DNA of 64,000 nucleotides. Source: Dipteronia dyeriana. Lineage: Eukaryota > Streptophyta > Magnoliopsida > Sapindales > Sapindaceae. Where the stretch lies: contig CM065299.1 in the NCBI GenBank assembly GCA_032871835.1, positions 98,090,652 through 98,154,651 on the forward strand, in the 5' to 3' direction. The first letter of the stretch is position 1. Every line of letters begins with the position of its first letter. The notes beneath the pieces are model-generated. The model did no database searches and had not been told where the DNA came from. It saw only the letters and a program-made list of their open reading frames with translations. The position numbers and the translations under genes were made by a program. Shown one piece after another: positions 30,869 through 52,368 of this stretch.

Positions 30869-31710
30869 TGTCATATGTGAATTTTATCGCATGAACACGT
30901 CACCAAACAAAGAGGATAAATTGCTAGGTGGACATCCGAATAGACACTCAGAAAATATTCTACAAGACATCATCGAATAAGAGAACCCGAGTAAATAGAT
31001 ATTGAACAAAACCCACTAAAGGTCAATCGATATCATATATTACACGGGATCAGCTAACGACACTCGGGACTGGTTAAATAACGCTTCTACTCTGGATCAA
31101 ATGACATTACTCGGGACCAGCGAAATTGTCCTTACTCGGGGCAAGCGTGAAGAAAACTGAATAAAAGCTCAGCACATAGCCCACGTGGATCATGTCATTA
31201 AGACGCACAAAGATATCCATAGGAATCCCAATAAAAGAGGAATATTAAATAGGAAAGGTTCCCAATCAGGCAACACTTTTATTTTTTCAAAAAGACAACT
31301 TCCCACGAAATAAGTCCTAATTGGACTACGTTACTAGAGTCTCACTCGATCTCAATAAAAGACTCCTAAACAGGAAAGAAGACAATCAGCTTCAAACAAG
31401 CAAATAATTGTAATTAAAGACACAGATCTACTATTACTTATATAAAGCAGATTAAGGTTCTATAAACATATAAATAGACCCATAATCTCGCCATACAACA
31501 CACACACAGAAAATCATAGAAGTTTTAACCACCCGTGGACGTCCACGGGTGATCATTCAACCACTCGTGGACGTTTCTCCGGTCATCGAAGTTTTACCAC
31601 GTAAAAAACTTGTATCTTGTTTGCTTTCTCCTTCTCTCTCTCTTTGAAATCTCAGTCGAAATCCAATCCTTGTTGGCTTTTCTGATACAATCCATAAATC
31701 AGCGTCAACA
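30869..31710 (+). repeat. 5' LTR of the Tat element
   Basis: 842 bp, TG...CA. It carries a series of CTCGGG motifs in the U3 part, a TATA box at 31469-31477 and a CCACGGGTGATCATTCAACCA block near the end. The 3' LTR is longer by an insertion near 52138-52180. Confidence 0.92.
31469..31477 (+). promoter_or_regulatory. TATA box of the Tat 5' LTR
   Basis: TATAAATAG about 240 bases before the LTR end, conserved in the 3' LTR (CATATAAATAGACTC). It is the likely promoter of the genomic transcript. Confidence 0.6.
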
Positions 31711-31731
31711 ATTGGCGCTAGAAGGAGGGGT
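31711..31731 (+). other. Primer binding site candidate of the Tat element
   Basis: Directly after the 5' LTR: ATTGGCGCTAGAAGGAGGGG. The TGGCGC start is complementary to a tRNA 3' end, as usual for this group; which tRNA was not determined. Confidence 0.55.
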
Positions 31732-31930
31732 TGAACCTCCAACTTGATCAAAAGCGATGGCATGAAGCAGAAACAATTCAAGAGATGTCCAAAAATCTTC
31801 GGATAACTTCCATGTTGGCAGTACCTCACGGGATCTCACTGCAACAACAGAAAACCAACCTACATTCCTGGCGGGGATCCAGCAAGTTCCTTCAACCAGT
31901 GGAGATCTGACTCAACATTTTCAGGAAGCG

Positions 31931-33163
31931 TTGCAACAACTGGTGGCAGACGCAGCAAAGGAAGGAGTTGATCTACTGGCTACAGAAGCACCAACTCCTA
32001 ACCTCCCACCTGCAAGGCTTCATTCAGTGGTAGTAGGGCCTGAAATAAATACACCAGAAGTTGGAAGGAACCCTATTCCAATCAAACAGGCTGGATGTGA
32101 AACTATTGAAGATGAACGACCACACCAGAAGCAGAACCAGGATCAGACATCCCGGGCTAGACACCGCAAACATGACCGGTTGTCTTCAGAAGACAACGAT
32201 CGACACTATCGCAAGCTCCATCACGGAATCATACGTGAAACCCAGCATCAGAGTGAAGAGCCAGAAAGAGGACTGACAATCACCCAGAGGTTTGACCATT
32301 GGGGAAGTCTAGTGGGAGGCAGAGACGTCGTAATCCAAAGCCTAACTCGAGAAGTCAAGAACAATAGACGACAGATGGATGCATTGGTCAGACGTTATGG
32401 GTATAACGATTTATCTAATGACGATACTGACAGTCCATTCACCAGGGAAATCTTACGGACCCCATTCCTAGAAAGGTTTAGGATGCCACACGTAGAGCAG
32501 TTTAAGAAAGATACAGATCCAAATGAGCACGTGAGACGCTATAAAAGTGCAATGGCTCAGTATGCCCACAGTGATCCCTTACTATGTCTAAATTTTCCAC
32601 AAACTCTGGAAGATATGGGCTCAAGGTGGTTCGGGAGATTGCCCCCAACAAGCATCAAAAGTTTTAGTAAACTGAGCAGGAGCTTCTCAATGCAATTTCT
32701 GAGTAATGTTCAAGGAAAAAAGTTAGTGGCTCACATTTCTCAAATAAAACAAGGGAAAGATGAGTCACTGAAGAAATACCTGAGGAGATTCGGCCAAACG
32801 GTATTAGAAATTGACAGTGTAAACAATGAAGTAATAATCGCTGCATTCATCAACAAACTGCAGAATGGACGACTATCTTTTGATTTAAGAATAGCTCGAT
32901 TGACAAGACATGCAGACATGATGGATATGGTGGGAGGATATGCACTGGCCGAGGAAGAAGAGTTAGCCACGGGAGGATGCTACATGCATGGGGGAAAACC
33001 TGAACAGAAGGACGCCGAGTCCAAGGTACAAAACCAAAAGGGAAAACAAAAAGGAAACGATAAAGAAAAGAGCAAGGACATGGGTAATGGGCGTAACATC
33101 GAACAGACCACAGAAAAATACCGAGGTAGGTACACCAATTACACCCTTCTTCAGAAAAAATAG
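31931..33163 (+). pseudogene. Tat Gag (main part)
   Basis: 410 residues from the first Met, though the frame is open further upstream without a Met, so the original start may be lost. The middle (about residues 170-330) is a retrotransposon Gag capsid domain: TPFLERFRMPHVEQF, DPNEHVRRYKSAMAQY, FPQTLEDMGSRWFGRLP, FSKLSRSFSMQF, and KQGKDESLKKYLRRF. The C-terminus is Lys/Glu rich. It ends at a stop at 33161-33163, just before the zinc-knuckle part that should be fused to it. It would form the virus-like particle. Confidence 0.85.
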
Positions 33164-33181
33164 GAGGAAATCCTGACCATT

Positions 33182-33401
33182 TTGGAAACAAAGAATATGG
33201 TACAAGAGCCACACTGTCAATCTCAGTTTGCTTGGCGAGACGTAACCAAATACTGCAGGTTCCATAAGGAAACCGGTCTTGAGACCTCCAAGTGTTACAA
33301 GCTCAAAGATTACATAGAAACCCTCATTTGGGAAGGACATCTACAGGATGTGATCTTGAAAAAGGATGAAAAATCAGAAGCAAAAAAAGAGATCAGGACC
33401 T
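33182..33401 (+). pseudogene. Tat Gag C-terminus, cut by the Athila insertion
   Basis: Contains YCRFHKETG..TSKCYKLKDYIE..I..GHL, the CHC-type knuckle region typical of Tat Gag. It is separated from the main gag frame by a stop and ends where the Athila LTR begins at 33402; the frame then runs into LTR sequence. The continuation is at 43219 (NTIFGEPSTGRSN). Confidence 0.8.
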
Positions 33402-34667
33402 TGACACGTCCTAAAGAAGTGTTCTTACTTTCAAGTATAAGAGTGTCAAAGTAATAAATTAACCGGTAAGACCGGGTCGAACCACATGGAGGTTGTTCAC
33501 TTGTCCTTGTAGAATTAATTTATAGATTAATTAATAAGCTTGTATAAAATGTAAATCAATTAAAATTAATACTTGGGCTAAGGGATCCACTGTTGGTATT
33601 TCGAATATGATCCAATTATTTATATTTAGTATAGATTAATGGGAGGGTATTCCACTCCACTGACCACTCTCTAATAAATATGGGTAAAAGTACTCACTGT
33701 GCTATACAATATCTGTCTATCTACAGTGAGTCAAAAACTCCACAAAGATTAGAGGGGATAAACCACTCTTTGATAAATATGGGTAAAAGTACTCACTGTG
33801 CTAGACAATATCTGTCTATCTACAGTGAGTCAAAAACTCCACAAAGATCAGAGGGGAGAAAGCATAAAAATAATAAACTTACCAAAATTGGATCATATTT
33901 TCCATACCAACAGTATCACCTTTGGCCCCAACTATATAAAATTAGCCAGACATAATTTAACTAGAAAATAACTATTTTATTTAAACTAAGAATTTGAGAA
34001 CAAAATAGAGAGAATTTCACAAATCTAACATCAGATTTGGATTCAGGACATCAAAATTAGGGGGGAGAGACTCCCTATTAATACAAAATACGGAGGAAAA
34101 TTGATCATCGGATGAATTTAGAATGAAGCGTCCAGATTTTGCCACGTCATCAGTGAACAGTAACTCATCCATGAGTGAATAGTAACCACATCAATGAGTG
34201 AACAGTGAAATTCAACTATGAACAGTGAATAGTTAAAATTATGAAAATGCCCTTCAGTGAACAGTGATAGTGAATAGTAACCCATCCATAAGTGTACAGT
34301 ACCGCATCCGAGAGTGAACAGTAACGCATCGTGAGTAAACAGTGAAAGTCAACTATGAACAGTAAAAGTCAACTATGAACAGTAAAAGTCAACTATGAAC
34401 AGTAAAAGTCGATTGTGAACAGTGAATGGTCAAAATTACGAAAATGCCCTTCGTGGTCTTCTTAAGATTTTTTGCCATCTGACATCTCCATGAATCTGAA
34501 TTGACCGAATTACCTCTGAAATACAAAGAAAAATACACTGATTACTACACGACACATTTATTTAAGCGAACAAACGAAATTATGTCTAAATTGAGGAATT
34601 AATCATATTGGAAGTGTAAAATGATGATATTATCCCATAGTAAACATACACTTTTCAGTGTTAATCA
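33402..34667 (-). repeat. 3' LTR of the Athila element
   Basis: 1266 bp. It shares with the 5' LTR a roughly 98-bp tandem duplication (33668-33766 and 33767-33860, each with GGGTAAAAGTACTCACTGTG) and a minisatellite built on GTGAACAGTGAAAGTCAACTAT (about 34150-34440), whose copy number differs between the two LTRs. The two LTRs show few differences by eye. Confidence 0.92.
34150..34440. repeat. AACAGT minisatellite in the Athila 3' LTR
   Basis: Irregular units of about 20-22 bases around GTGAACAGTAAAAGTCAACTAT, roughly a dozen. The matching block in the 5' LTR is 42670-42950 with a different unit count. Confidence 0.85.
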
Positions 34668-34682
34668 CACCCCCTAACCAAC
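34668..34682 (-). other. Polypurine tract of the Athila element
   Basis: On the minus strand GTTGGTTAGGGGGTG immediately before the 3' LTR start TGATTAACAC. It would prime plus-strand synthesis. Confidence 0.7.
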
Positions 34683-34974
34683 TTATTGTTAGTCTCTAGC
34701 AATTAAAGCGAAAATAGTAAAGACTCAAATTCAAATCTCTAAACTACCAAATAGACAAACTCTCCCATACATCTTTTCTCACCCTTTGACAACCAGTCAT
34801 CAATTGAGTTATTAGTCAAACTTTCTTGTGCTCAATAAAGATCAACACGATAACTATGAGATTCAATTGAAATCAGTCAACATTTTCATTCCAAAATCTC
34901 ACCAGGGCTTTTTCCTTAGGCAACGGTTTTTTTTTTTTTTCTTTTTTCTTTTTTAACTAGAAAATAACATTCCA

Positions 34975-35225
34975 TCTTTAATCCATGTAGCGAGCTTTAG
35001 GCCAATGACTCCTAAACCAGTTGGCTTTAGGGCATTAAGTGTTGAAATACTTCTACTGGCTTAATTACTCGGATTGCAGATGTTTTTTTTTTAGTACAAT
35101 TCACTTAAGCTTTCTCTTTAACCCGTGTAACGAGTTTTGGGTCAATGACTCCCAAACCAGTTGGTCTTAGGGCATTAGGTGTTAAAGCACCCCTCGGACT
35201 TAATTGCTCGAGTTAAAGAGGCTAC
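34975..35225 (-). repeat. Diverged tandem duplication in the Athila 3' untranslated region
   Basis: Two copies of a roughly 110-base stretch (about 34975-35085 and 35115-35225) share CAATGACTCC..AAACCAGTTGG..TTAGGGCATTA and GGTGTTAAAGCACCCC-type text. Non-coding. Confidence 0.7.
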
Positions 35226-35717
35226 GGAACTGTACTTTATTCTTATCTAGACTCCACCGTTTTACGCGAACACTCTATGCTTACTGAGGCATGAGGCCCG
35301 GTTACTAAGTAAGAGTTTTGGTCAACACACAAAATTATTATTATTATTATTACTATATAAAATTTTAAACAAGACCATTGCCTTCGGTTGCTACCCTTGA
35401 ATGATGTTTCAGAACTCAATATCGTAAAATCTCAACTTACTGCATATAATCACGTGTCAATGTGTTTGTGTGTCTAGAATAGTTCAAAAAATTTCTCAAG
35501 ATGACTTAATGAACAAAAGGATTAGTCAATGATATCACAATGGAGAGTTTATAAATTTGAATAGTCATAAGAGAGGAAAAGAGAAAAAAAAATGCATCAG
35601 AACTACAAAGATGCGTCTCAGAATTATCTAAATGATCTCCTTACTCGGCCATATTTACAAAAAAAAAGATCAAAAGTTTTTTTTTTTTTTGAAAAACAAA
35701 AGTTATTGAATCAACTA

Positions 35718-35760
35718 TCCCCTCCCCCCCAACCAGAATGAGACATTGTCCCCAATGTCT
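35718..35760 (-). other. Athila-type post-pol motif
   Basis: On the minus strand it reads as a GACATTGGGGACAATGTCTC sequence followed by GGTTGGGGGGGAGGGG. This GGACAATGT ... GGGGGG pattern normally follows pol in Athila-like elements. Here it lies just beyond the LOG-like ORF, placing that ORF inside the element. Confidence 0.6.
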
Positions 35761-35880
35761 TTAGAAGAGTTAAGGTTTAGAAGATATCACCTGAACAACT
35801 TGAAAGACAACAAAATCCTGCAAAACAACAAAAGAAATACAAAATAAAGGAAAATAAAATGCATAAAAACCATAGGACAA

Positions 35881-36534
35881 TCACAAACTGAGATTCAAAT
35901 CAATTCTGTGTTTCTTGTTCTCTTCATCAGTGGACCAATCAATTTTGGAGGTTGAAGGATCTGGCACATAATTGAAAGCTTGTAACTGGTCAATCAGCTC
36001 ATGAGGACTTGAAGCAGATATAAAGATTTTTCGGATTGAAGGTGGAATGTAATAATTTTTCTGAGCATGATCAAGAAATGAAAGCAAACCATCATAAAAT
36101 TTATTAACATTCAACAAACCGATGGGTTTCTCATGGATGTGTAGTTGCGTCCAAGATGCCATTGTAAAGATTTCTTCTAAGGTTCCAAAACCACCTGGCA
36201 AAGCTATAAACGCATCAGCATGATGTAACATAGCAGTCAATCTTTCAGGCATACCTGAAACAACTAGCTCTTCGCCGTTTGTCTTTCCGATGATGTTTGC
36301 TGCGACCATAGGTTTTGGGACAATACCCAGAACTTGACTACCTCCGTCTCGTGCAGCTCGTGAAACAAACCCTATTAATCCCAAGTTACCTCCTCCATAC
36401 ACTAGGTGTATTTTTCGCTCAGCCAAAACCTTACCAAGATGAGTTGCAGCATCAACAAACTCTCTGTACTCCCTATAATTGGTGTCACCAAACACACAAA
36501 TGTTTGTGAATCGTTTAGTTGAAGGTGACGCCAT
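35881..36534 (-). CDS. LOG-like cytokinin riboside 5'-monophosphate phosphoribohydrolase, intronless, inside a retrotransposon
   Basis: LOG enzymes release active cytokinin bases from their nucleoside monophosphates in the cytosol or nucleus. This 217-residue product has the normal family length and fold signature: GGGNLGLIG at 47-55 (nucleotide-binding loop), catalytic Arg98 in the MPERLTAM stretch, and PGGFGTLEE at 113-121 with catalytic Glu121. It then has WTQLHIHEKPIGLLN and a normal C-terminal helix region. The N-terminal CVFG lacks the usual CGSS serines, so it belongs to a divergent branch. I chose Met at 36534 because the upstream Met (36633) lies before the TATA box. Plant LOG genes normally have several introns; this frame has none, suggesting an RNA-derived copy. 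It sits between integrase and the 3' LTR of an Athila element, same strand. The open frame in a decayed host element suggests recent capture or selection. Confidence 0.85.
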   Translation of the reverse strand: MASPSTKRFTNICVFGDTNYREYREFVDAATHLGKVLAERKIHLVYGGGNLGLIGFVSRAARDGGSQVLGIVPKPMVAANIIGKTNGEELVVSGMPERLTAMLHHADAFIALPGGFGTLEEIFTMASWTQLHIHEKPIGLLNVNKFYDGLLSFLDHAQKNYYIPPSIRKIFISASSPHELIDQLQAFNYVPDPSTSKIDWSTDEENKKHRIDLNLSL

Positions 36535-36604
36535 TAATGCACTCTCTGAATTTTTCTTTTGAATGTTTATGAGTGCTTGAAGCAAAAAGGAAAACAAATG
36601 CTTG

Positions 36605-36612
36605 TATTTATA
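36605..36612 (-). promoter_or_regulatory. TATA box of the LOG-like gene
   Basis: TATAAATA on the minus strand, 71-78 bases upstream of the chosen ATG. It allows a start site about 30 bases downstream and a leader of about 40 bases rich in A and C. It implies a promoter separate from the LTR. Confidence 0.55.
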
Positions 36613-36839
36613 GATCCTGAAAAGGTAACACAATGATACACCTATATGTATAGGGCGACAAGTTTGTCAATGATATTAGATCCAAATGGTTCAAAAATCA
36701 AAAGCAAACAGCAATAATTACAAAAGACATTAAATGCGGAAGGAAAAAGATAATAAAAACAATATGATATTTATTGGTAGTTGTGATTGTGGCTCACATC
36801 TTCCTCTGGTTTTACGTCCAGAAACGGCTTCAACGCCCT

Positions 36840-37349
36840 CTATGGGTCGGGGATATGCTTCCCATCCAATTTTCTTATAATTTGGCAAACAGGGTCTTTT
36901 AAAGTCAAATTCCCAAGACTATATTGTGCATATTCTTTTTGAAATTGCGGCAATAATCGGTCAATTGCCATTTGCACATATCCACTAGGATGTGCATCAA
37001 GAGTCATTAGAATATTATCCAGTGACTCCCTACGCAAACCATGCCTAATGAATAAAATTTTATCTTCCCGATTATTATACACCATTCCTAAAGAACGACA
37101 ACGTGTGTTGCAAGTTGTACGTGCACATTTGTGACAAGTAACCCCTAACTTTTTAGCTCTTCGTTTTTTTGCAAGGTTACTTCTTCCAAAACCAGGCATG
37201 TAAGATATAAATGAATCAACATACTCACCTGCTAGACGTACCTTAACTTCGATCAACCAGCGAATTTCAACAGGAATGTTGTTTATCTTCAGTAAGCGTA
37301 ATCTTTCGGAACGTGCTTTGTAAATCTTTTTCAGAGCATTTTGGGGCAA
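36840..37349 (-). CDS. Unrecognised cysteine-cluster ORF carried by the Athila element
   Basis: 169 residues, intact. The N-terminal third is basic and helical (MPQNALKKIYKARSERLRLL). The middle has CHKCARTTCNTRC, a C-x2-C-x4-C-x3-C cluster preceded by a KKRRAKKLG basic patch, suggesting a metal-binding nucleic-acid-binding module. The C-terminal part is mixed helix/loop. A TATATAA-like box is on the same strand near 37485. It lies just after the integrase end and before the LOG-like ORF. It may be an element accessory protein or another captured fragment. I do not recognise the family. Confidence 0.55.
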   Translation of the reverse strand: MPQNALKKIYKARSERLRLLKINNIPVEIRWLIEVKVRLAGEYVDSFISYMPGFGRSNLAKKRRAKKLGVTCHKCARTTCNTRCRSLGMVYNNREDKILFIRHGLRRESLDNILMTLDAHPSGYVQMAIDRLLPQFQKEYAQYSLGNLTLKDPVCQIIRKLDGKHIPDP

Positions 37350-37610
37350 CGATGGGAAATGTTTTCACAGGTTTGTGAAAATTTCATCCATGCCTTGTTT
37401 TGGGGATCAGTTATTTGGAAAACTGAATTAAACCGACTGGAATTGTCACGGAGTACCGTTATCCGCCACTTAACCGGGGTTATATAGCAAAAACACACCA
37501 AGCAAAAACTGAACCTAAAAATTAATCCTGTAAAAATTCAAAACGTAAAAGCGAACAAAAACAAAAACAATAATTGCAAACACAAATAAAGTCAAAAGCA
37601 AAAGATTTGT

Positions 37611-38120
37611 TTACTCACCTTTGTAACAAGGGTCAAAAAGGACGGTAGAGTCTTTTTGAAAATCTGTATTTTCTAAGAATGGTTTCACACGTTGTCCATT
37701 TACTTTAAACACATTACCATTCATAGGATTCTCAATATCAAGGGCACCATATGGATAAATGTGTTTCACAACAAATGGACCACTCCATTTCGATTTCAAT
37801 TTATCAAGAAATATATGAAGTCGAGAATTATAAAGCAAAACCTTTTGATCAACTTCAAATGATCTTCTTAAAATTCATCTGTCATGAAAGGTTTTAGATT
37901 TTCCTTTAAGAATTTTTGCATTTTCATATGCATCATTTCTTAATTCTTCAAGTTCATTTAATTGCAACTTGCGCAATTCACCAACATCATTTAGGTTAGA
38001 ATTGAAAGCTTTAATGGCCCAATATGTTTTTTTCTCAAGTTCAACAGGTAAGTGGCAAGGTTTTCCATAAACTAAACGATAAGGAGACATACCCAAAGAT
38101 GTTTTGAATGTAGTGCGGTA
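37611..38120 (-). pseudogene. Athila integrase C-terminal part
   Basis: Frames at 37875-38096 ([20 protein letters not shown], then basic helices) and 37611-37838 (LKSKWSGPFVVKHIYPYGALDI, an SH3-like end domain) continue integrase after a stop near 38122 and another near 37870. There is no chromodomain, as expected for Athila. Confidence 0.8.
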
Positions 38121-38123
38121 AGC

Positions 38124-39305
38124 CTAAAGTGCATCATTTAGTTTAAGAGACCAATCTTTTCGATCAGGGTTAACCGTTTTTTGCAAGATATGTTTTATCT
38201 CCCTATTTGCTAACTCAACTTGACCACTTGTTTGAGGGTGGTATGGTGTGGCAATTTTATGTGTGACTCCATATTTCTTCATTAAAGACTCAAAAGGTTT
38301 GTTACAAAAGTGTTTGCCTCCATCACTGATAATGGCTCGAGGGATTCCAAATCGACTCAAAAGATTTTCCTTTAAAAACTTGATCACTGTTTTGTGATCA
38401 TTATTTCGACAAGGAATTGCCTCGACCCATTTTGACACATAATCAACAGCAACTAAAATGTACAAAAATCCAAATGACGGTGGAAATGGACCTATAAAAT
38501 CAATTCCCCAACAATCAAATATTTCAATGACAAGAATGAGGTTTAAAGGCATCATGTTTCGCTTGGAAATGGATCCTAACTTTTGACATTTTTCACAGGT
38601 TTTACAAAATGCATGTGCGTCTTTAAATAAGGTGGGCCAATAAAATCCACACTGCAAGAATTTTGCAGCCATTTTCTTTGACAAAAAATGACCACCACAT
38701 GCTTCAGAATGAAAAAATTCAATGACACTACTTACCTCATTGCTTGGAATACACCGTCGAACAATTTGATCAGGACAATACTTGAATAAGTACGGGTCAT
38801 CCCAGTAAAAATGTTTTACCTCAGTCAAAATTTTCTTTCTGTCCTGTGCATTCCAATCGAGTGGCATCATTCCTGTTGCAAGATAATTAACAATGTCAGC
38901 ATACCAAGGCAAAGTTGTGATAGAGAATAAAAGATCATCAGGAAAAGAATCATTGATGGGTGATTTTTCTTCTGGCTCGTCATCTTTCTTTTCCAATTTT
39001 TCAAAATATAAAGTGTCTCTTTCTTTTTCGGCAACCTGCAAACAATTATCTAGATGTGAATGCGAGCTTGACTCAGGTGAATTGATCAAACAAATTTCAG
39101 ATGGGTTAAAAGAATCCTTTTGAACATGATCTTCAACAATGGTTTCAACAATGTCTACATCTTTATCTTCATTTTCATCATCAAATGGTTCATTAGACAT
39201 GTTGAAAACATTAAGCTTAATTTCCATATTTCCAAAAGACATGCTCATTATTCCATTCCTGCAATTAATCAAGGCATTCGCAGTAGCCAAAAATGGTCGG
39301 CCCAA
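38124..39305 (-). CDS. Athila protease-end to integrase ORF with RT/RNase H missing
   Basis: 393 residues in one frame. Residues 1-38 are the usual end of the protease domain ([17 protein letters not shown]). After an acidic linker of about 90 residues, the frame goes straight to the pre-integrase block ([15 protein letters not shown]) and the HHCC zinc domain ([11 protein letters not shown]). The DDE core follows, with [13 protein letters not shown] and [14 protein letters not shown]. All RT and RNase H motifs (such as YxDD) are absent, without a frameshift. It could still make an integrase, but replication would need enzymes from another element. Confidence 0.85.
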
Positions 39306-39347
39306 TATAACAGGAATTGATTTGTGCTCATTAACAACAGGTTGTGT

Positions 39348-39653
39348 TTATAAGACAATAAAATCTACTGGGTAGATAAATTTATCGACTTGTACTAACA
39401 CATCTTCCACTATTCCTTTTGGTATTTTAATTGACCTATCAACAAGACAAAGTATGGTTGAAGTCGACTTTAACTCACCAAGTTTAAGTTGCTGATAAAA
39501 TGAGTATGGGAGCAAATTTACACTAGCACCTAGGTCAAGTAAAGCATGCTCAATTTTACAGTTACCAATTGTGTAGGAAATAGTGGGACAACCAGGATCT
39601 TTATATTTCAAAACATTTTTATTAGAAAGAATGGAACTTACCTGTTCAGCCAT
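39348..39653 (-). pseudogene. Athila aspartic protease
   Basis: 101 residues with the active-site DLGASVNLLPYSF (the Athila form of D-T/S-G) and VDKFIYPVDFIVL. A stop at about 39345 separates it from the GRPFLAT end in the next frame piece. It would process Gag-Pol. Confidence 0.8.
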
Positions 39654-39671
39654 AAAGACTTTATTTCTTAC

Positions 39672-40751
39672 CTAATGCTTCCTTTTCACAGTGCACAGAT
39701 CCTTCAAAAATTTGGCATAAGAAGGTATCTGTTTGATTGCGTTCAACAAAGGGATATTGATCTTTACCTGTTTGAAAATTTCAAAAATCTCTGGGGAATG
39801 CTTCGATTTATGTGAGTTTTTAAGAGCCTGAGGATATGGGAGTGTAAGTGGGGATTCAATTATTTCTTCGTCAACAGTGGTTTCATCAACCCCTTCCTTA
39901 CCCTTGGAAAGTGACTCGTCATCATTTTTACCAGATTCAAGAATAGGTTTTTCGATGACCTTACCACTACGAAGAGTGATAATTGATTTGACTTGATCTG
40001 GGCATTGGTTATTATCATAGAAACTTGACTGACTCTTGGGATTTGGTTGTGGTTGAGATGGAAACTTACCTTTTTCGTGTGTGGTGATTGTAGAAGCAAT
40101 CTTTGCCAAAGTATCTTTAACATCTATCAAGGTTTGTGCAGTTTGGCTGTTAATGGATTCTTGCTTCTCAATGAATGAGTGTAAAGTGTCTTTAAGGTTT
40201 TTCCTATATGGTGGGACATAAGGTGCATAACTTTGAGGGTTTTGGAAATTCTGATGTGTTTGTGGATGTGATGGACCTGGTGGTTGTGAAGACTTGGCTT
40301 GATTGTTGTTCCTCCAACTAAAATTTGGGTGATTTTTCCAACCAGGATTGTAGGTTTGTAAGTATGGGTTGGAATTTGGCTTGTTAAAAGTGTGCAAAAC
40401 ATTGGCTTGTTCATGAAGGCAATCTTTTATGGCTGGAAAAGTTGGACAACTATGAGTGATATGATTATCAGAATCACATACATGGCATGTGATTTCTTGT
40501 ACAGATTTTACATGTTCACTCTTTTTAGTTTCTAAAGCTTCAACTTTCCTAGCTAAGGATGCGAATATAGCTTGAAGGTCATGATCTTCCCTAAGATTGT
40601 AAATGCCTCCACTAGATGGAGATGGTTGTGATTTGCTCATGGACTCATAGGAACCAATGGTGTCCCAATTTTGAGCACTTTCGGTGATATGGTCAAGGTA
40701 TTCAAGTGCTTCTTCAAGACTTTTGTCACTGAACTCCCCATTACACATCAT
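39672..40751 (-). pseudogene. Athila Gag, C-terminal part with zinc knuckle
   Basis: 359 residues continuing gag after stops near 40765 and 40890. It has a CHVCDSDNHITHSC knuckle (C-x2-C-x4-H-x4-C, about residues 91-104), then a Pro/Asn/Gln-rich linker and an NIPLLNAIKQIPSYAKFLKDL stretch typical of the Gag-protease junction in Athila elements. Confidence 0.85.
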
Positions 40752-40979
40752 TTCAATAACTTGTCTACTTTAGGGTGTGAGTCCCTCATAGAAATGTGAC
40801 ACTATCCTCCATGTTTCAAAACCGTGATGTGGACAGACATTTAACAACTCTTTGAACCTATCCCAACATTGGTAAAGTGTTTCCCCAGGTTCTTAGGCAA
40901 ATGAAGTGATTTTTCTCTTAAGAGAGTTTGTTCTATGAGGTGGAAAAAATTTCTTTAAGAACTGTTGTTGCATATCATT

Positions 40980-41414
40980 CTAAGTTTGGATTGATCCTGA
41001 CCTAAGGTTTTGTAACCAAGTTTTAGCTTTATCTTTTAAGGAAGAAGGGAAAAACTCAAGCTTGATTATATCCATGCTAACATTTTGGTCAGTGCAAGTG
41101 TTACAGACTTCCTCAAACTCTCTAAGATGCAAATATGGATTTTCAGATTCAAGACCGTGAAAATTGGGTAAAAGTTGAATGATTCCTAGTTTAAAATTAA
41201 AGTGTGTTGCATTTGGTGGGAAAGATATGCATGAAGGTGCTCCAATACGTGTGGGATTCATGTAGTCTCTAAGAGTTCTAGGTGGATTTGGGTTAATGTG
41301 TTGGTCATGGTTAACATAAGGCGGATGGTTGCTGTGTTGAGACACGTTGTCAAGGTTGTCTAAAAGGTTCTCGGCTTGGTTTCCTACTGGATGTCTAAGT
41401 GGGTTTTCAGCCAC
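40980..41414 (-). pseudogene. Athila Gag, N-terminal part
   Basis: Starts at the first ATG after the primer site and leader. It contains the RTLRDYMNPTRIGAPSCI, FPPNATHFNFKLG, FHGLESENPYLHLREFEEV and SLKDKAKTWL blocks that define Athila Gag. It breaks off at a stop near 40979; the same protein continues through two stops into the next piece. Confidence 0.88.
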
Positions 41415-41902
41415 GTTGTTGGTAAATATGGGTTAATGGAGATGAAAAACACAAAAATGAAGAAAATAAAAGAAAAAGTGATAAAAATAACAAGATGCAA
41501 AATTCTAGGGGTATAAATACAAATATGTACAAGTATTGGGGTAAAAGCGTAAATAATTAAGAATATAGGGACTAAAGTAAAAATATGATAATTACAGGGA
41601 CTGGTATGTAAAAATAAAAAATAAAATGACCTATATGCAAATGCAAACTAGATATCAGCTAAAATGCAAAAGTACAAGGACTAAAATGCAAAAAATATGA
41701 TTAAAGATACCAAGTGTTTTTTTTTTAAGTGGATGAAGTTTATGATTGGTATAAGTGATGCAAAATTAAATACAAAATAAAAATAAAGAAGAAAAAAAAA
41801 TTAAAAAAATAGCAAAACAAAAATAAAATTAAAAAAATAGCAAAACAAAAATAAAATTAAAAAGAAATTACTACTACAAAGAAAATGCGGACTTACCTCC
41901 CC

Positions 41903-41921
41903 GGCAGCGGCGCCAAAAACT
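41903..41921 (-). other. Primer binding site of the Athila element
   Basis: On the minus strand directly after the 5' LTR: TTTTTGGCGCCGCTGCCGGGG. It matches the TGGCGCC..GCCGGGGA site (tRNA-Asp type) common in plant Ty3 elements. Confidence 0.75.
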
Positions 41922-43213
41922 TGACACGTCATAAAGAAGTGTTCCTACTCTCAAGTGTAAGAGTGTCAAAGTAATAAATTAACCAGTAAGACCGGGTCGA
42001 ACCACAGGGAGGTTGTTCACTTGTCCTTGTAGAATTGATTTATAGATTAATTAATAAGCTTGTATAAAATGTAAATCAATTAAAATTAATACTGGGGCTA
42101 AGGGATCCACTGTTGGTATTTCGAATATGATCCAATTATTTATATTTAGTATAGATTAATGGGAGGGTATTCCACTCCACTGACCACTCTCTAATAAATA
42201 TGGGTAAAAGTACTCACTGTGTTAGACAATATCTGTCTATCTACAGTGAGTCAAAAACTCCACAAAGATTAGAGGGGATAAACCACTATCTGATAAATAT
42301 GGGTAAAAGTACTCACTGTGCTAGACAATATCTGTCTATCTACAGTGAGTCAAAAACTCCACAGATATCAGAGGGGAGAAAATATAAAAATAATAAACTT
42401 ACCAAAATTGGATCATATTTTCCATACCAACGGTATCACCTTTGGCCCCAGCTATATAAAATTAGCCAGACATAATTTAACTAGAAAATAACTATTTTAT
42501 TTAAACTAAGAATTTGAGAACAAAATAGAGAGAATTTCACAAATCTAACATCAGATTTGGATTCAGGACATCAAAATTAGGGGGGAGAGACTCCCTATTA
42601 ATACAAAATACGGATGAAAATTGATCAACGGATGAATTTAGAATGAAGCGTCCAGATTTCGCCACGTCATCAGTGAACAGTAACCCATCCATGAGTGAAT
42701 AGTAACCGCATCAATGAGTGAACAATGAAATTCAACTGTGAACAGTGAAGGTCAACTGTGAACAGTGAATAGTTAAAATTACGAAAATGCCCTTCAATGA
42801 ACAGTGACAGTGAATAGTAACCCAGTCATAAGTGAACAGTACCGCATCTGTGAGTGAACAGTGAAAGTCAACTATGAACAGTAAAAGTCAAATGCGAACA
42901 GTAAGTCAAATGCGAACAGTAAGTCAACTGTGAACAATGAATGGTCAAAAATACGGAAATGCCCTTCGTGGCCTTCTTAAGGTTTTTTGACGTTCTAAAC
43001 TTGAAAACGATATTTGTTTTGCCATCTGACATCTCCATGAATCTGAATTGGCCGAATTACCTCTGAAATACAAAGAAAAATACACTGATTACTTTACAAC
43101 ACATTTATTTAAGCGAACGAATGAAATTATGTCTAAATTGAGGAATTAATCATATTGGAAGTGTAAAATGATGATATTATCCCTTAGTAAACATACATTT
43201 TCAGTGTTAATCA
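41922..43213 (-). repeat. 5' LTR of the Athila element
   Basis: 1292 bp with the same tandem duplication and AACAGT minisatellite as the 3' LTR, plus a 26-base stretch near 42990 absent or changed in the other copy. The end matches TGATTAACACTG (minus strand). Confidence 0.92.
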
Positions 43214-43218
43214 GACCT

Positions 43219-43860
43219 ATCACGGCTCTGGTCGAAATCAAAGGGCCAGTCCAGAGGCCAATCAAGTAATACATACGATATTTGGAGAACCATCCACTGG
43301 AAGAAGTAACCTAAAACGAATTCAGGAAATCAGAGAAGCAGTAGAAGCATGAAATAACTTTGATGTAAACTCGGTCGAGCCAGACCCGAAGAGGGTAAAG
43401 GAAGGATGAGACCCAATCACATTCACAGAAGTAGACTCATATGGCGTCGATGTTCGACCAAATGACGCCTTGGTTATAAGTGCCCGGATTGGTCATCGAG
43501 AAGTCAGGAGAATTCTAATAGATAATGGAAGCTCAACAAAAATTCTCAATGTAGCCATCTACGATCAACTCAGGTTAGACCGAAAGGACCTACAACCCTT
43601 CCATACCCCACTTAGAGGATTCAGGGGAATTGAGGTCAGATCACTCGAGACGGTAAAGCTACTTGTTAAGATTGGAGTATCACCTTGCCAGAGAACCGTG
43701 TTACTCGATTTCGTGGCGGTAGACTTGGACAATTGGCCATATAATGCATTACTGGGATGACCATTCTTGAATAAAACTAAGGTCGTAACCGCCACTTATG
43801 CCTTAATGATAAAATTCCCGACCGAACAAGGGGTCGGGGTAGTTAAGGGATCTTAAGATA
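43219..43860 (+). pseudogene. Tat Gag end and aspartic protease
   Basis: Starts with the target duplication copy and the Gag-end NTIFGEPSTGRSN motif. The protease follows: ARIGHREVRRILIDNGSST, with D-N-G as in Tat proteases, and FVAVDLDNWPYNALLG. A stop after LLG (TGA at about 43758) replaces an Arg codon of the usual LGRP. The part between 43330 and 43470 has stops. Confidence 0.82.
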
Positions 43861-44122
43861 TGGCCCGAAGAGCTAACCTGTCAGTATACAAGGACAAGAA
43901 TGAACAGGTTTGCACCATAACACAGCCGAGTTAGAACGAAAAGCCGTTATCATTCGAATTCGACCCAAGGGAAGAGTCGAATGAATCCAAAACTGAACCG
44001 GTCGAAGAAGTCACCTTGAAGGAAGATGAACCAGACAAAAAAGTCAAGATCGAGGCCAACCTGGATGGAAAAGTTAAACAAAGCCTTGTTGATCTGCTTA
44101 AAGAATACATGGATGTGTTCGT

Positions 44123-44960
44123 TTGGAGTCATGCATGATCGGGATAGATGCCCGAATAATATCTCACCATCTCACAGTAGACCTGAATGCAAAACCGGTA
44201 ATACAAAAGAGAAGGTCATTCAATCTTGAAAGAAGTCAGGCAATCAAACTGGAAGTAGAGAAACTACTCGTTATGGGATCGATTAGAGAGGTTAATTACC
44301 CTCAACGGGTGGCTATTGTAGTCCTCGTCCAAAAGAATAATGAATATTGAAGGATGTGCGTAGATTTCACATATCTGAACAAGGCATGCCTGAAAGATAG
44401 TTTTCCACTTTCGAGGATAGATCAGTTGGTGGACGCTATATCATGCCATGAGCTAATCAGTTTCATGGATGCTTACTCGGGGTATAACCAGATCAGGATG
44501 TACAAGGCTGAAGAAGAAAAAACAGCATTCACAACTGATCAAGGATTATACTGCTATACTGTGATGCCCTTCGGATTGAAAAATGCAGGAGCAACTTATC
44601 AAAGGTTGGTCAACAAAATCTTTTCACGGCAAATAGGAAGGAACATGGAAGTATACATTGATGACATGCTGACCAAGAGCATCACAGCAGACAAACATAC
44701 TTCAGATCTGCGGGAAACATTTGATGTCTTGAGGAGATACCAAATGAAGCTAAATATGAACAAGTGTTTATTCGGGGTTCCTTCAGGAAGATTCCTGGGT
44801 TTTCAAGTCCATCAAAGAGGAATCTAAGTCTACCCCGAGAAGATCCAGGCTCTACAGAAAATGACTTCACCGAGGACACTCAAAGAAGTACAACGCCTAA
44901 CAGGATGTTTGGCTTCCTTAGGAAGATTCATCTAAAAAGCCACAGATAGATGTGCACCAT
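44123..44960 (+). pseudogene. Tat reverse transcriptase, broken by stops
   Basis: Runs through VRIVVLVQK..NEY, then a stop at 44348 in place of the conserved Trp (TGG to TGA), then RMCVDFTYLNKAC, PLSRIDQLVDA, FMDAYSGYNQI, MPFGLKNAGATYQRLVN and the catalytic VYIDDML. It ends at a stop at 44825-44827 after LGFQVHQRGI. The thumb/connection continues to about 44960 with frame changes. The enzyme core is recognisable throughout, but it is not translatable as one protein. Confidence 0.9.
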
Positions 44961-45072
44961 TTTCAAAGTAATTAGAAAAGGGGAAGGACTTGAATCGAAT
45001 GAAGAGTGCGAGCACACATTCTTAAAAATTAAAGAATACTTAGGACAGACTCCCATCCTTTCAAAACCTTAG

Positions 45073-46059
45073 ATGTGGGAGACACTCCAACTGTACTTGT
45101 CAATTACAGAACTGACAGCAAGCTCAGTTCTAGTCAGAACAGAAGATGAAGTACAAAAGCAAGTGTACTACACCAACAAGACACTTCTACCAGCTGAGAC
45201 CAGATATTCACAGGTAGAAAAGATGGCTCTGGCACTAGTTTCAGCAGCAAGAAAGCTAAGGTCATACTTTCAGGCTCATACAATTCAGGTTCTCACCGAT
45301 TACCCATTGAAGCAGATTTTACAGAAGCCTGAGATTTCAGAGAGATTAACTAAATGGGTAAGCGAGCTAAGTGAATTCGATATCCACTACATTCCCAGGA
45401 CATCTCTCAAAGGGCAAGCAGTGACAAATTTAAAAGCAAAATTCATAGAACCGAACCTAGAAGCAAAAAAGATGTTGGGTAAAAGCTTCATATGGAAACT
45501 GTATGTTGATGGCTCTTCAAACACTCATGGTAGTGGGGCAGGGATTGTAGTATGCACTCCATAAGGAGACGATGTCGAGTGTGCCATGAGGTTCGACTTT
45601 AAAGCAACCAACAATCAAGCTGAGTACGAGGCGTTAATAGCTGGACTCAGAGTCTGCATAGCTCTCGGGGCAGATGAGGTTGAGATATTCAGTGATTCAC
45701 AGGTAGTTGTCAACCAAGTTCTGGACGAGTACCGAGCCAATGATGAAGGCATGATAATCTACAGTAACATTAAGAAACAGCTCATCCAGAAATTTAAAGA
45801 ATATAAGATTACCCAGATCCTCAGGGAGGAGAATGAAAAGGCAAACACATTGTCCAAGCTAGCATCAGCAACAACCACAATCAGGCCAAAGACTATTCTG
45901 GTTGCACATCTCCTTAAACCGAACACAACTGAACCAAGAAATTTAGAAAATTTAGAAATCCGAACACCTCCAGGCGGTTGGATGACTCAGCTAAAGAGGT
46001 TCCTGGAAGAAGGCATACTCCCAGAAGATCCTTTACAAGCAAAGCGCATCAGGTATTGA
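45073..46059 (+). pseudogene. Tat RNase H plus second (archaeal-type) RNase H
   Basis: The first frame (to 45564) carries the Ty3 RNase H (SSVLVRTE, YYTNKTLLPAETRYSQVEKMALAL, LTDYPLKQIL) and the first motif of the second RNase H (LYVDGSSNTHGSGAG). A stop at 45562-45564 (TAA where GAA is usual) interrupts it. The same frame resumes with FKATNNQAEYEALIAG and IFSDSQVVVNQV, giving the D-E-D set of the archaeal-type RNase H. Two RNases H in tandem are diagnostic of the Tat lineage. Confidence 0.9.
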
Positions 46060-46099
46060 TCGGCAAGGTACACCTTGATCGGAGGAGAATTATATAGAA

Positions 46100-47211
46100 G
46101 GGGTTTCCCAAACTCTCCAGAGATATGTACTAAAGGAAGATACACATCGAATACTTCAGGAGATCCACAGAGGAGTTTGTGGAAACCACATTGAGGGTAG
46201 AAGTTTAACACACAAGGTACTCAGGCAAGGCTATTACTGGCCTACGCTTTTCTCAGATGCACAACAATGTTCAGAGAGTTGCAATACTTGTCAAAGGATT
46301 GCCAACGATATCCGGCAGCCCCCTGAAAAACTCAAAAACCTCACATCCCCATGGCCATTTGCCATGTGGGGTTTAGATCTAATCGGCCAAATGCCAGCTG
46401 GAACATGCGTGGAGCAAAACATGTCATAGTAGCTGTTGATTATTTCACGAAGTGGGTAGAAGCTGAAGCACTAGTGCATATCACAGAAGCAAACACCATG
46501 TTTTTTATGAAAAAGAATATACTTTATAGGTTTGGAGTTCCAGACACTATAATCACTGATAACGGCACCCAGTTTGATAACTGGAAGTTCAGACAGTTGT
46601 GCAAAGAGTACCAGATTGCTAATTATTATGCCACACCTGCCCACCCTCAAACAAATGGACAGGTTGAAGCGGTGAATAAAATCATCAAACACACAATCAA
46701 AGCAAAGTTAGATGCCAAAAAAGGAAGCTGGGTTGAAAAGCTTCCTGAAGTACTGTGGGCATATTGGACAACAACGAGAACCTCAACAGGAGAAACTCCA
46801 TTCACTCTAGCGTTTGGAACAGAAGTTGTTATCCCTATATAAACGTCGTATGCATCACCTCGGGTCAGGCTATATGACGAAGATCAGAATGTTGATATGC
46901 TGTTACAAAGTCTAGATGAACTAGAAGAGAAAAGAGAGAAATCCCGAATACGAAATGTGGTATATCAGCACAGAGTATCTCGCCACTACAACTCTCATGT
47001 GCGGGTCAGGAAGTTCCAACTGGGCAACTTGGTTCTCATAAATGTGTCTTTGAACACGAAAGATAAAGCTGCAGGTTCACTAACTGATAAGTGGGAATGG
47101 CCGTACAAGATCGAGGGAGTAGCTGGCCATGGAGCATATTGGATTGCACGACCTAATGGAGGGGGTCCCCGTCCATGCATTGCCCTATATCTGAAAAATT
47201 TATATCCTTAA
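46100..47211 (+). pseudogene. Tat integrase, frameshifted
   Basis: The zinc domain (HRGVCGNH, YYWPTLF, C..CNTCQ) lies at 46150-46300 in another frame from the core at 46400-46842, which has VDYFTKWVEAE (Asp), ITDNGTQFDN (Asp) and HPQTNGQVEAVN (Glu). The end domain (VRVRKFQLGNLVLINVS, WPYKIEGV) is at 46897-47211. A stop at 46840-46842 and frame changes near 46380-46430 break the protein. Confidence 0.88.
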
Positions 47212-47629
47212 ATTATTTTTTGTTCTTTTTTCTAGACAAGACAATTTTTAGTTAGATCAGATATCAACTGTGGAATTTAAACCTTTGTTAATTTTGCAGT
47301 TATAAATAAAACTTGAGATTTTCGAAAGATAAAGCATATGATAATAAAAACATATGGAAGACGAGCATGATAAGAACATGCAAATAGAATTCTCGGGACC
47401 ATTAAATCTCGAATAGGCGGAGAAGCTCGAAGAAGCATGCCAATCGAGCAAGGTCAAATGATCTTCGTAAAAAGGTAAACCCGATGCACCAGCTCGGGAC
47501 GCTATCGGGAAACATTCCGGTGAAATGCGTAGCTGTGTTAAGCAATTCAAAAAACTTAACGATTCAGTAAACCTTTGCACATAAAAACTAGGAAGACGTC
47601 CTTGGTAATGTGTAAAGACTCGAACATAT

Positions 47630-47965
47630 GATCATGTTGAGCCTTGATGTAATATTCGGGTAGTAACTGGGTATGAAACACAAGTATAAACTTGCTTGTT
47701 TTAAGATGACTCGGTTAATAATTCCCAAAAGTCAGTTTAATGAGATACTTGGCATTTACAGTTATTCGGGTAACAACCGATTTAATAAGACACTCGGTGA
47801 AGTTACCCGAACATCAGAGTAAGCCAGTTTAATAAGATATTTGGCATGAAGATTATAAGAGCCAGTTTAATAAGATACTTAGCATTATTCGGGTGACAAC
47901 CGGTTTAATAAGATACTCGGTTAAGTACACGAACGACATAAATAACTGGTTTAATAAGATGATTA
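47630..47965. repeat. Tandem repeats downstream of Tat integrase
   Basis: Irregular units around ATTCGGGTAACAACCGGTTTAATAAGATACTCGG, with GGTTTAATAAGATA occurring about seven times at 25-60 base spacing. Minisatellites in this part of Tat elements are known and are thought to seed satellites. Confidence 0.8.
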
Positions 47966-48149
47966 ACAATTATAGTCAAGTTGAGATTCCGCGAGCAATA
48001 GAATCAAAACACCAGGTTCAGAAAATGCCACTTGGAATTTTTATTCATCTTTCAAAAGAATTATTACAAAGTATTCTTTACAAAGAATAAGTTAGTCTAC
48101 AAAAATCCTATCTACAAAATCAGGATTGTGAGGATTTGGAGCCCTTGCC

Positions 48150-50993: not shown

Positions 50994-51477
50994 AAAAACT
51001 AACATTGAATAAAGTCTGGTGCAAGATCTTCAATGAAAAGTCACGACCTTTTGCGTAAGGAAATTTGGGTTCAGGAATTTTTTTTTTCTGCTGAGAAATC
51101 TGGGTTTAAGAAATTCCTTCTGCTGAGTGAAGAATTTAAAGAAATAAAAGCATGAAACCCTAGATCTCAAGGCGGGAAAAAACAATGATAATGATTGATG
51201 ACGTAGGCGGCGCACGGGGAAGCGAGCATGTCGTTTCTCGTAAATGATATCGAAAACGAAAAGGCAAGAGACATGTGTCAGAAGGAGAACTAGCTTTCAC
51301 CGTCAGAACTCCAAAACGTCGCCGTCATTAAAGATCTCGCGTAAGGAGGCAAATCGAATTTACAGGATCGTCATTAAAACACGTCAATATGACAAGATAT
51401 TTACTCTGATACTGAAAGGATATTGATAACTAATTAAAATATTTATGCCCGAACAAACCTTGTTCAACAAAAATATT

Positions 51478-51489
51478 TTAAGGGGGTAT
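51478..51489 (+). other. Polypurine tract of the Tat element
   Basis: TTAAGGGGGTAT immediately before the 3' LTR start TGTCATATG. Confidence 0.75.
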
Positions 51490-52368
51490 TGTCATATGTG
51501 AATTTTATCGCATGAACACCAAACAAAGAGGATAAATTGCTAGGTGGACATCCGAATAGGCACTCAGAAAATATCCTACAAGACATCATCGAAGAAGAGA
51601 ACTCGAGTAAGCAGATATTGAACAAAACCCACTAAGGGTAAATCGATATCATATATTACACGAGATCAGCTAATGACACTCGGGGAATGGTTAAATGACG
51701 CTTCTACTCGGGATCAAATGACATTACTCGGGACCAGCGAAATTGTCCTTACTCAGGACAAGCGTGAAGAAAACTGAATAAAAGCCCAACATATAGCCCG
51801 CGTGGATCACGTCATTAAGACGCTCGAAGATATCCATAGGAATCCCAATAAAAGCAGAATATTAAACAAAAAAGGTTCCCAATCAGGCAACATTTCTATT
51901 TTTCAAAAAGACAACTTCCCACGAAATAAGTCCTAATTGGACTACGTTACTAGAGTCCCACTCGATCTCAATAAAAGACTCCTAAACAGGAAAGAAGACA
52001 ATCAGTTTCAAACAATCAAATAATTGTAATTAAAGACACGGATCTACTATTACTTATACAAAGCAGATTAGGGTTCTATAAACATATAAATAGACTCATA
52101 ATCTCGCCATACAACACACACATAGAAAATCATAGCAAAATACAGAGAAGAAAGAGAGATCGAGAGCTTGTAGCATTCCAAATTCATAGTGGATTTTGGC
52201 TAGGTTGATCATTCAATCACCAGTGGACGTTTCTCCGGTCATTGGAGTTTTACCACGTAAAAAACTCGTGTCTTGTTTACTTTCTCCTTCTTTCTCTCTC
52301 TTTGAAATCTCAGCCGAAATCCAATCATTGTTGGCTTTTCTGATACAATCCAGAAATCAACGTCAACA
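51490..52368 (+). repeat. 3' LTR of the Tat element
   Basis: 879 bp, same ends as the 5' LTR. It contains AGAGAAGAAAGAGAGATCGAG and following sequence (about 52138-52190) where the 5' LTR has a shorter, rearranged CCACCCGTGGACG block. Confidence 0.92.

What the first reader, a model, noticed from the sequence alone, without database searches (positions are those of the whole stretch)
33402..43213. LTR retrotransposon carrying an intact LOG-type cytokinin-activating enzyme gene
The frame at 35881-36534 has a complete LOG signature (GGGNLGLIG, Arg98, PGGFGTLEE with Glu121) and normal family length, yet no intron. It lies between integrase and the 3' LTR of an Athila element, same strand, before the Athila post-pol GGACAATGT..GGGGGG motif and polypurine tract. 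The target duplication GACCT borders the outer LTRs, so the ORF is inside the unit. Gene transduction by plant LTR elements is known, but I know of no described case of a LOG gene. A mobile cytokinin-activation gene could alter hormone levels wherever it lands. The ORF is open while neighbouring gag and protease are broken.
Basis: partly seen in the sequence, partly recalled or inferred. Interest (0 to 1): 0.93.

Follow-up and report, generated by a model that had tools for sequence, protein, structure and literature searches.

The report
Retrotransposon with hormone and virus-like genes
A plant jumping-gene family, present in more than a hundred copies in this genome, carries an intron-free gene predicted to make an enzyme that switches on the growth hormone cytokinin, right beside a gene that resembles a plant-virus protein; such a hormone gene in this kind of element had been reported before, but the pairing, also seen in Citrus gene models, is likely undescribed.

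Summary
An Athila-type Ty3 element (33402-43213, minus strand, 5-bp target duplication) carries an open, intronless 217-codon LOG gene between integrase and the 3' LTR. It is cargo, not a single-locus retrogene: the genome gives 671 LOG-domain candidates (150 scored, all above cut-off), and 20 of 20 loci sampled through the neighbouring gene carry LOG (10) or a deletion scar of it (10). Eight loci look like intron-bearing host LOG genes; a tree splits element-type from host LOGs with 100/100 support.

(1) LOG in such elements is not new: a 2022 survey reports it for Citrus and Populus. (2) A second extra gene, about 182 codons, sits upstream of LOG; its core matches carlavirus nucleic-acid-binding proteins above Pfam cut-offs, and it is under purifying selection between element lineages (dN/dS 0.24). 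Thirty of 30 fused gene models, 29 named Citrus, show NABP then LOG. (3) This copy lacks reverse transcriptase and belongs to an amplified RT-less subfamily.

Function is untested. Only 11 of 45 copies examined have a full LOG frame, and none of 86 Citrus-search proteins matches the catalytic motif, so enzyme activity is not a constant of the lineage.

The parts
33402..43213 (-). Athila-type Ty3 LTR retrotransposon, RT-less subfamily, nested in another LTR element
33397..33401 (.). target-site duplication GACCT (left copy)
43214..43218 (.). target-site duplication GACCT (right copy)
41922..43213 (-). 5' LTR, 1292 bp
33402..34667 (-). 3' LTR, 1266 bp, 95.7% identical to the 5' LTR
41898..41915 (-). 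primer-binding site TGGCGCCGCTGCCGGGGA (tRNA-Asp type by recall)
   Evidence: for the letters; tRNA assignment recalled, not tested
40980..41432 (-). gag, first piece
   Evidence: PF03732 only 15.3 bits, below cut-off
39672..40769 (-). gag, second piece, same frame as the first, parted by in-frame stops
39348..39671 (-). protease region, followed by an in-frame stop
   Evidence: PF13650 only 15.1 bits, below cut-off
38959..38969 (-). 11-bp junction where RT and RNase H are absent; RT-bearing copies have this stretch on both sides of the RT block
38124..38969 (-). integrase (H2C2 and rve core)
   Evidence: PF00665 1.5e-17, PF17921 2.2e-11
37611..38123 (-). integrase C-terminal part, two pieces of the same frame parted by a stop
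37400..37480 (-). non-coding block before the NABP gene, 87.7% identical over 73 bp to an element of another plant (L029)
36840..37391 (-). extra gene 1: carlavirus-type nucleic-acid-binding protein (NABP) homologue; frame open from 37364, in-frame stop at codon 9 in this copy
36535..36640 (-). LOG leader with a TATAAATA box
   Evidence: motif TATAAATAyAAG counted 23 times in the fetched loci
35881..36534 (-). extra gene 2: intronless LOG gene, 217 codons, catalytic motifs kept
35716..35759 (-). post-pol GGACAATGT..GGGGGG motif, also in L029 (76% over 42 bp); typical of Athila by recall

Best explanation
This is one copy of a large Athila-type Ty3 retrotransposon family that carries two extra genes between integrase and the 3' LTR: a gene for a zinc-finger-like protein whose core matches carlavirus nucleic-acid-binding proteins, and an intronless LOG gene that was likely captured long ago from a spliced host LOG messenger RNA and is predicted to encode a cytokinin-activating enzyme. 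Shown here: both genes lie in the same place and order in many copies; element-type LOGs form one clade apart from the genome's own intron-bearing LOG genes; the same order occurs in Citrus gene models; two LOG-deleted subfamilies and one RT-deleted subfamily have also spread. Inferred: the virus-type protein would blunt RNA silencing of the element, as carlavirus proteins do for the virus, and the LOG enzyme would raise active cytokinin in the cells where the element is transcribed, keeping them dividing or meristem-like so that new insertions are passed on. Copies lacking RT or LOG would be moved in trans by complete relatives.
For: Cargo: 671 LOG-domain candidates, 150 scored, 150 over cut-off. 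Of 24 other copies reached through LOG, 22 have all or part of the NABP gene upstream and 20 have integrase sequence. Of 20 loci sampled through NABP (about every seventh of the 150 listed of 1544 candidates), 10 have LOG, 5 a type-A scar (LOG residues 170-217), 5 a type-B scar (last codons only). Ten copies have readable, different flanks beyond the 3' LTR. Capture from mRNA: 8 loci whose last exon is 67-94% identical to Arabidopsis LOG3 have exons parted by introns at places the element LOG reads through. Single clade: 100/100, stem 0.69, 24 element-type rows against 5 host and 2 Arabidopsis LOGs. NABP: PF01623 in 36 of 46 and PF05515 in 33 of 46 relatives, best 1.1e-8; six NABP proteins scanned again all pass both cut-offs. 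NABP dN/dS against L029 0.24 (dS 0.86), integrase 0.10. Citrus: 30 of 30 fused gene models put NABP before the best LOG match; P0265 adds the integrase C-terminus, P0335 carries PF00078. Fold: AF2 pLDDT 87; best match Arabidopsis 2a33, TM 0.95 by target. Viral proteins of this type suppress silencing, and chrysanthemum virus B p12 induces hyperplasia (PMC12172455, passages).
Against: No expression or enzyme data. Within this genome the selection signal for LOG is weak: relative to expectation, nonsynonymous-to-synonymous counts are 1.17 for private differences, 1.67 for those shared by two copies, 0.64 for those shared by three or more; for NABP the last figure is 1.14. Mean pairwise dN/dS 0.68 for LOG, 0.80 for NABP, 0.67 for integrase. 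11 of 45 copies have a full LOG frame, 7 of these with all three motif strings tested; of the 25 copies with enough upstream sequence, 2 have a full NABP frame. LOG-deleted subfamilies spread, so LOG is not needed in cis. 0 of 86 proteins first listed in the Citrus search match PGGxGTxEE. The NABP model is poor (pLDDT 58) and its best viral fold match is not significant (E 0.63). P0211, a fused Citrus model, did not reach PF01623. L029 has NABP but no LOG in its 3.3 kb.
Confidence: 0.8

Rival explanations
1. LOG is passenger cargo: a host gene captured once, carried along without benefit, decaying neutrally in each host and repeatedly lost.
For: Private changes look neutral; most copies broken; two LOG-deleted subfamilies; Citrus-search proteins lack the catalytic motif.
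Against: Outside Dipteronia the 40 other aligned relatives are 56-63% identical, mostly of similar length, with catalytic residues nearly invariant; 94 of the 120 proteins listed match the motif string. A passenger would hardly stay open at that distance.
Confidence: 0.3
2. LOG works without catalysis: as a nucleotide-binding or oligomer-poisoning pseudoenzyme that interferes with host LOG.
For: Citrus LOG-type proteins lose the motif yet form large clusters, one of 705 member sequences.
Against: The Dipteronia window copy, the Populus proteins and most of the list keep the motif.
Confidence: 0.12
3. An independent LOG retrogene that landed in this one element.
For: The ORF is intronless.
Against: Same place in the other copies; 20 of 20 NABP-sampled loci have LOG or a scar of it. 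A target duplication around LOG itself was not searched for.
Confidence: 0.01
4. The NABP similarity is convergence of a short basic zinc-finger stretch, not kinship with viral proteins.
For: The match covers about 30-90 residues, 22-36 bits; fold comparison inconclusive.
Against: Two separate Pfam viral families match at E 0.001 or better in 36 and 33 of 46 relatives.
Confidence: 0.2

Closest known systems
Ty3 elements with a LOG-type (YgdH) domain: Alvarado-Marchena 2022 (PMC9289625) and Steinbauerova 2011 (Athila-like with LOGL4 similarity, recalled)
   Same: LOG-type domain in Ty3 elements of Citrus and Populus; probably the same lineage
   Different: In the parts read it is a domain hit only; no NABP partner, copy anatomy, LOG-deleted or RT-less subfamilies, or motif comparison there. 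Its supplementary domain chart was not seen.
Carlavirus and related cysteine-rich / nucleic-acid-binding proteins (PF01623, PF05515)
   Same: Basic stretch and cysteine core match the Pfam profiles
   Different: Here about 182 aa, encoded by a retrotransposon downstream of integrase, with conserved N- and C-terminal parts outside the Pfam match
Plant LOG cytokinin riboside 5'-monophosphate phosphoribohydrolases
   Same: Fold, length, catalytic motifs
   Different: Intronless, mobile, mostly 40-62% identical to host LOG exons, separate clade
Cytokinin genes on bacterial mobile DNA: Agrobacterium T-DNA ipt, Rhodococcus fascians plasmid fas genes (recalled, no call)
   Same: Mobile DNA that carries a cytokinin-producing gene
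   Different: Bacterial plasmid DNA of a pathogen, not a resident plant retrotransposon
Phalaenopsis Ty3 elements with an AlkB-like demethylase (PMC9289625)
   Same: Ty3 element that gained an extra enzyme domain
   Different: Different enzyme; no paired virus-type gene mentioned in the parts read

Membership tests
Ty3/gypsy LTR retrotransposon | Two LTRs, target duplication, gag-PR-RT-RH-INT order | tested here: met
   LTRs and TSD; order in RT-bearing copies L011, L013, L015, L020; PF00078 and PF17917 in L015. The window copy itself lacks RT and RH.
Athila lineage | No chromodomain, extra ORF 3' of integrase, tRNA-Asp-type PBS, GGACAATG..GGGGGG motif, RT in the Athila clade | tested here: inconclusive
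   No chromodomain hit; PBS and motif present, but their assignment to Athila is recalled; no RT tree against named elements was made; PF03078 not among the hits.
LOG phosphoribohydrolase | PF03641 domain and fold | tested here: met
   E 6.9e-37; fold match 2a33
LOG phosphoribohydrolase | PGGxGTxxE motif and Arg98 | tested here: met
   Window copy and 94 of 120 proteins for the motif; 0 of 86 in the Citrus search
LOG phosphoribohydrolase | Cleaves cytokinin riboside monophosphate | not testable with these tools
   needs an enzyme assay
Carlavirus NABP / cysteine-rich protein | PF01623 or PF05515 above curated cut-off | tested here: met
   Window copy PF01623 22.4 bits vs 20.9, PF05515 13.7 vs 23 not met; 36 and 33 of 46 relatives at E 0.001
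Carlavirus NABP / cysteine-rich protein | Same fold | tested here: inconclusive
   Model pLDDT 58; best viral match E 0.63
Carlavirus NABP / cysteine-rich protein | RNA-silencing suppression | not testable with these tools
   needs a silencing assay
Host LOG gene | Intron-bearing locus in the host LOG clade | tested here: not met
   Intronless, multi-copy, outside the host clade at 100/100

The most novel reading that the evidence does not exclude
A lineage of plant retrotransposons has built and kept, across rosid families, a two-gene host-manipulation module: a virus-type silencing suppressor plus a cytokinin-making enzyme, so that it both hides from RNA silencing and keeps its host cells dividing. 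In Citrus the enzyme has turned into a pseudoenzyme. It would be the first retrotransposon known to steer plant hormone levels for its own spread.
Probability: 0.3. Interest if true: 0.88.

Novelty: new variant of a known kind. Interest (0 to 1): 0.66.

Why it matters
Extra ORFs of plant Ty3 elements are mostly of unknown origin and function. Here two of them get a concrete identity: one resembles an RNA-virus protein, the other a hormone-activating enzyme, and both hold the same place in many copies, with the same order in Citrus gene models. That makes the question whether plant retrotransposons manipulate silencing and hormones directly testable with two small proteins. It also warns annotators: many Citrus, and possibly Populus, 'LOG' gene models are likely retrotransposon genes, so LOG family counts there may be inflated. 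The 2019 reference survey looked for extra ORFs of at least 250 codons (PMC6317226, passages), which would pass over both genes (about 182 and 217 codons).

Tried and rejected
Rejected: single-locus retrogene; a LOG-free ancestral state among the sampled loci of this genome (all 10 LOG-poor loci keep a LOG scar). Led nowhere: viral-contig scans with the window NABP protein and with alignments A1 and A2 gave 0 loci; the NABP fold search gave no significant match; Rfam gave two matches at E up to 1, both below gathering scores. Literature searches whose listings (titles, abstract starts) showed no paper on a carlavirus-type protein in plant LTR elements; the library holds open-licence papers only. 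One error: an NABP dN/dS run in the wrong frame was redone. LOG was left without a between-species DNA comparison: a search of this genome with a Xanthoceras LOG did not complete.

The host is probably Dipteronia dyeriana: the best near-identical LOG hits come from that species and its contig lengths (116951285, 115350299, 82664400) nearly equal C6, C3 and C7 here; this is inference.
Full report
The element. On the minus strand the window holds an LTR element at 33402-43213 with LTRs of 1266 and 1292 bp, 95.7% identical (K2P 0.044), ends TG..CA and a GACCT target duplication. At assumed rates of 4e-9 to 1.3e-8 that is about 5.5 to 1.7 million years (rates recalled). It sits inside another LTR element whose gag (31766-33163) and RT (44351-44827) lie on either side. 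Gag, protease and integrase are recognisable and lie in one frame with 7 in-frame stops, but the frame runs from protease straight to integrase: RT and RNase H are missing. Copies L011, L013, L015 and L020 have RT between two 11-bp stretches that are one stretch here; 7 other copies (L009, L010, L017, L021, L024, L025, L028) run across the window's junction without a break. So 8 of the 12 copies that show both sides, the window included, belong to an RT-less subfamily that has spread, presumably moved in trans (inference). L022 and L027 begin to match at the junction and were not counted.

LOG. The frame 35881-36534 encodes 217 aa with PF03641 (E 6.9e-37), 46-47% identity to the Arabidopsis LOG structures and a confident model with the same fold (pLDDT 87, TM 0.95 by target). 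Arg98, Gly114, Gly115, Thr118 and Glu121 are invariant or nearly so in 44 aligned proteins (44 chosen from 121).

Cargo, not a lone insertion. The genome gives 671 LOG-domain candidates; the 150 scored all pass the Pfam cut-off. I read 24 further copies reached through LOG (20 nine-kb loci and 4 of 8 short ones; the other 4 short loci are the same places as long ones and were dropped): 22 have all or part of the NABP gene upstream, 20 have integrase sequence; L016 and L018 have no NABP match and break off before it. This sample is biased to good LOGs, so I took 20 loci through NABP, about every seventh row of the 150 listed of 1544 candidates; that list is itself biased to NABPs like the window's. 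Ten have LOG (at least 80% of its length, some with frame breaks), five keep only LOG residues 170-217 and five only the last codons, with shared breakpoints within each group. Hence LOG is likely ancestral in this family, and two LOG-deleted subfamilies have amplified. In 17 of the 20 nine-kb loci the script found an LTR end; 10 gave different flanks, 7 hit the 5' LTR instead.

Host LOG genes. A search with a last-exon piece of Arabidopsis LOG3 puts 8 loci at 67-94% identity ahead of all other listed places, which reach 41-64% (not all of those were checked to be element copies). Two of the eight (L051, L057) show a stop in the scored match. All eight have exons parted by introns, two or three exons found in L050-L052 and five in L053-L057. 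The element LOG reads through those places, so it likely came from a spliced mRNA. In a tree of 31 sequences, 24 element-type LOGs of Dipteronia, Citrus, Xanthoceras, Populus and unnamed plants form one group against five host LOGs and two Arabidopsis LOGs, 100/100, stem 0.69. That the Populus, Xanthoceras and unnamed members lie in elements was not shown here; P0017 (LOG) and P0141 (NABP) share a contig length of 4511, and P0001 from Xanthoceras holds a stretch that by eye resembles the window's gag next to LOG, though BLAST at E 1e-5 did not flag it.

The neighbour. The ORF 36840-37364 belongs to a family of about 182-aa proteins; 312 of 395 candidates score at E up to 10, the 120 listed all below 1e-51. 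PF01623 (carlavirus nucleic acid binding) matches 36 of 46 and PF05515 (viral nucleic acid binding) 33 of 46 of those aligned, best E 1.1e-8. The match covers the basic stretch and cysteine core only. A contig in a bacterial MAG record, plant by content, has the same integrase-NABP arrangement without LOG in its 3.3 kb (L029). Against it, NABP dN/dS is 0.24 for the window copy and 0.22-0.30 for the 29 other gap-free rows of 41; integrase gives 0.10. So NABP is a selected gene of the element lineage, and LOG is found in part of it. The direction of transfer between virus and element is unknown.

Other plants. A search with a Citrus gene model that fuses NABP and LOG returned 331 proteins, 120 listed; the query biases the list to Citrus. 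Of the 343 proteins then held, 30 contain both parts, and all 30 have NABP before the best LOG match (P0241 has a further LOG piece ahead); 29 bear Citrus x changshan-huyou names, P0329 has none. P0265 adds an integrase C-terminus; P0335 carries an RT domain. Of 86 proteins first listed there that pass a YGG/YEG filter, 0 match PGGxGTxEE; 69 show a D-L-A-type variant such as PGDLATLEA, and some models skip the stretch. In the first list 94 of 120 match (88 of the 112 that pass the same filter).

Selection within this genome. Mean pairwise dN/dS: LOG 0.68 (25 copies), NABP 0.80, integrase 0.67, protease 0.75, gag pieces 0.58 and 0.84; 55 pairs of intact LOGs 0.65. Splitting differences by sharing (35 LOG copies), relative to expectation: private 1.17, shared by two 1.67, shared by three or more 0.64. 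The last class gives 0.60 for integrase and the second gag piece, 0.59 for protease, 1.16 for the first gag piece and 1.14 for NABP. So LOG behaves like most core genes, but the signal is weak and neutral decay dominates. Full LOG frames: 8 of 25 LOG-anchored copies (window included) and 3 of 20 NABP-anchored loci; full NABP frames: 2 of the 25 (the NABP-anchored stretches start too late to judge).

Conserved non-coding stretches. 73 bp before and 98 bp after NABP are 88-89% identical between window and L029, more than integrase DNA (76-79%). They may control expression of the extra genes (inference).

Known and new. LOG-type (YgdH) domains in Ty3 elements of Citrus and, with a filter off, Populus were reported in 2022, in line with a 2011 report (PMC9289625, passages and section 12; supplement not seen). 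From recall, the 2011 Genetica abstract names two Athila-like elements with similarity to LOGL4; that paper was not held. [quoted passage not shown] The listings of my searches showed no paper on a carlavirus-type protein in plant LTR elements or on its pairing with LOG. The 2019 survey looked for extra ORFs of at least 250 codons (PMC6317226, passages). PMC8616336 (passages) lists other ways in which transposons counter silencing.

Mechanism. Shown: position, order, copy number, separate LOG clade, selection on NABP between lineages. Inferred: silencing suppression by NABP, by analogy to carlavirus proteins (PMC12172455, passages); cytokinin release by LOG; benefit through dividing, meristem-like cells. 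I give the functional part about 0.35 and the structural part above 0.95.

Noticed in passing
window 30901-33454 and 43219-52369: Outer LTR element: gag 31766-33163 and RT 44351-44827 with direct repeats about 20.6 kb apart (30901-31711 / 51517-52369), split by the Athila-type insertion; Ty3-type by gene order as read by eye.
   Followed up: partly
window 37400-37480 and 36750-36850: Non-coding stretches flanking NABP are more conserved between window and L029 than the integrase DNA; a possible RNA or splice-control element.
   Followed up: partly
window 38959-38969; L009, L010, L017, L021, L024, L025, L028: RT-less subfamily with one shared junction at an 11-bp stretch that is doubled in RT-bearing copies.
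   Followed up: partly
L030, L032, L033, L037, L046 and L039, L041, L043, L044, L049: Two LOG-deleted subfamilies, each with its own shared breakpoints.
   Followed up: partly
window 40819-40927 (+): Sub-threshold Rfam hit to plant snoR71 (36.2 bits, gathering 40) antisense to gag; the Rfam family may contain retrotransposon sequence.
   Followed up: no
P0280, P0093 and other Citrus proteins: Citrus element-type LOG proteins lack the catalytic motif yet some are annotated as cytokinin phosphoribohydrolases; one cluster has 705 members.
   Followed up: partly
window 54991-57419 (+): Frames that look like exons of a RING-finger protein, probably an ordinary host gene (by eye only).
   Followed up: no
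window 33663-33864 and 42183-42384: About 100-bp tandem duplication inside each LTR, and short repeats with the core GTGAACAGT further on.
   Followed up: no
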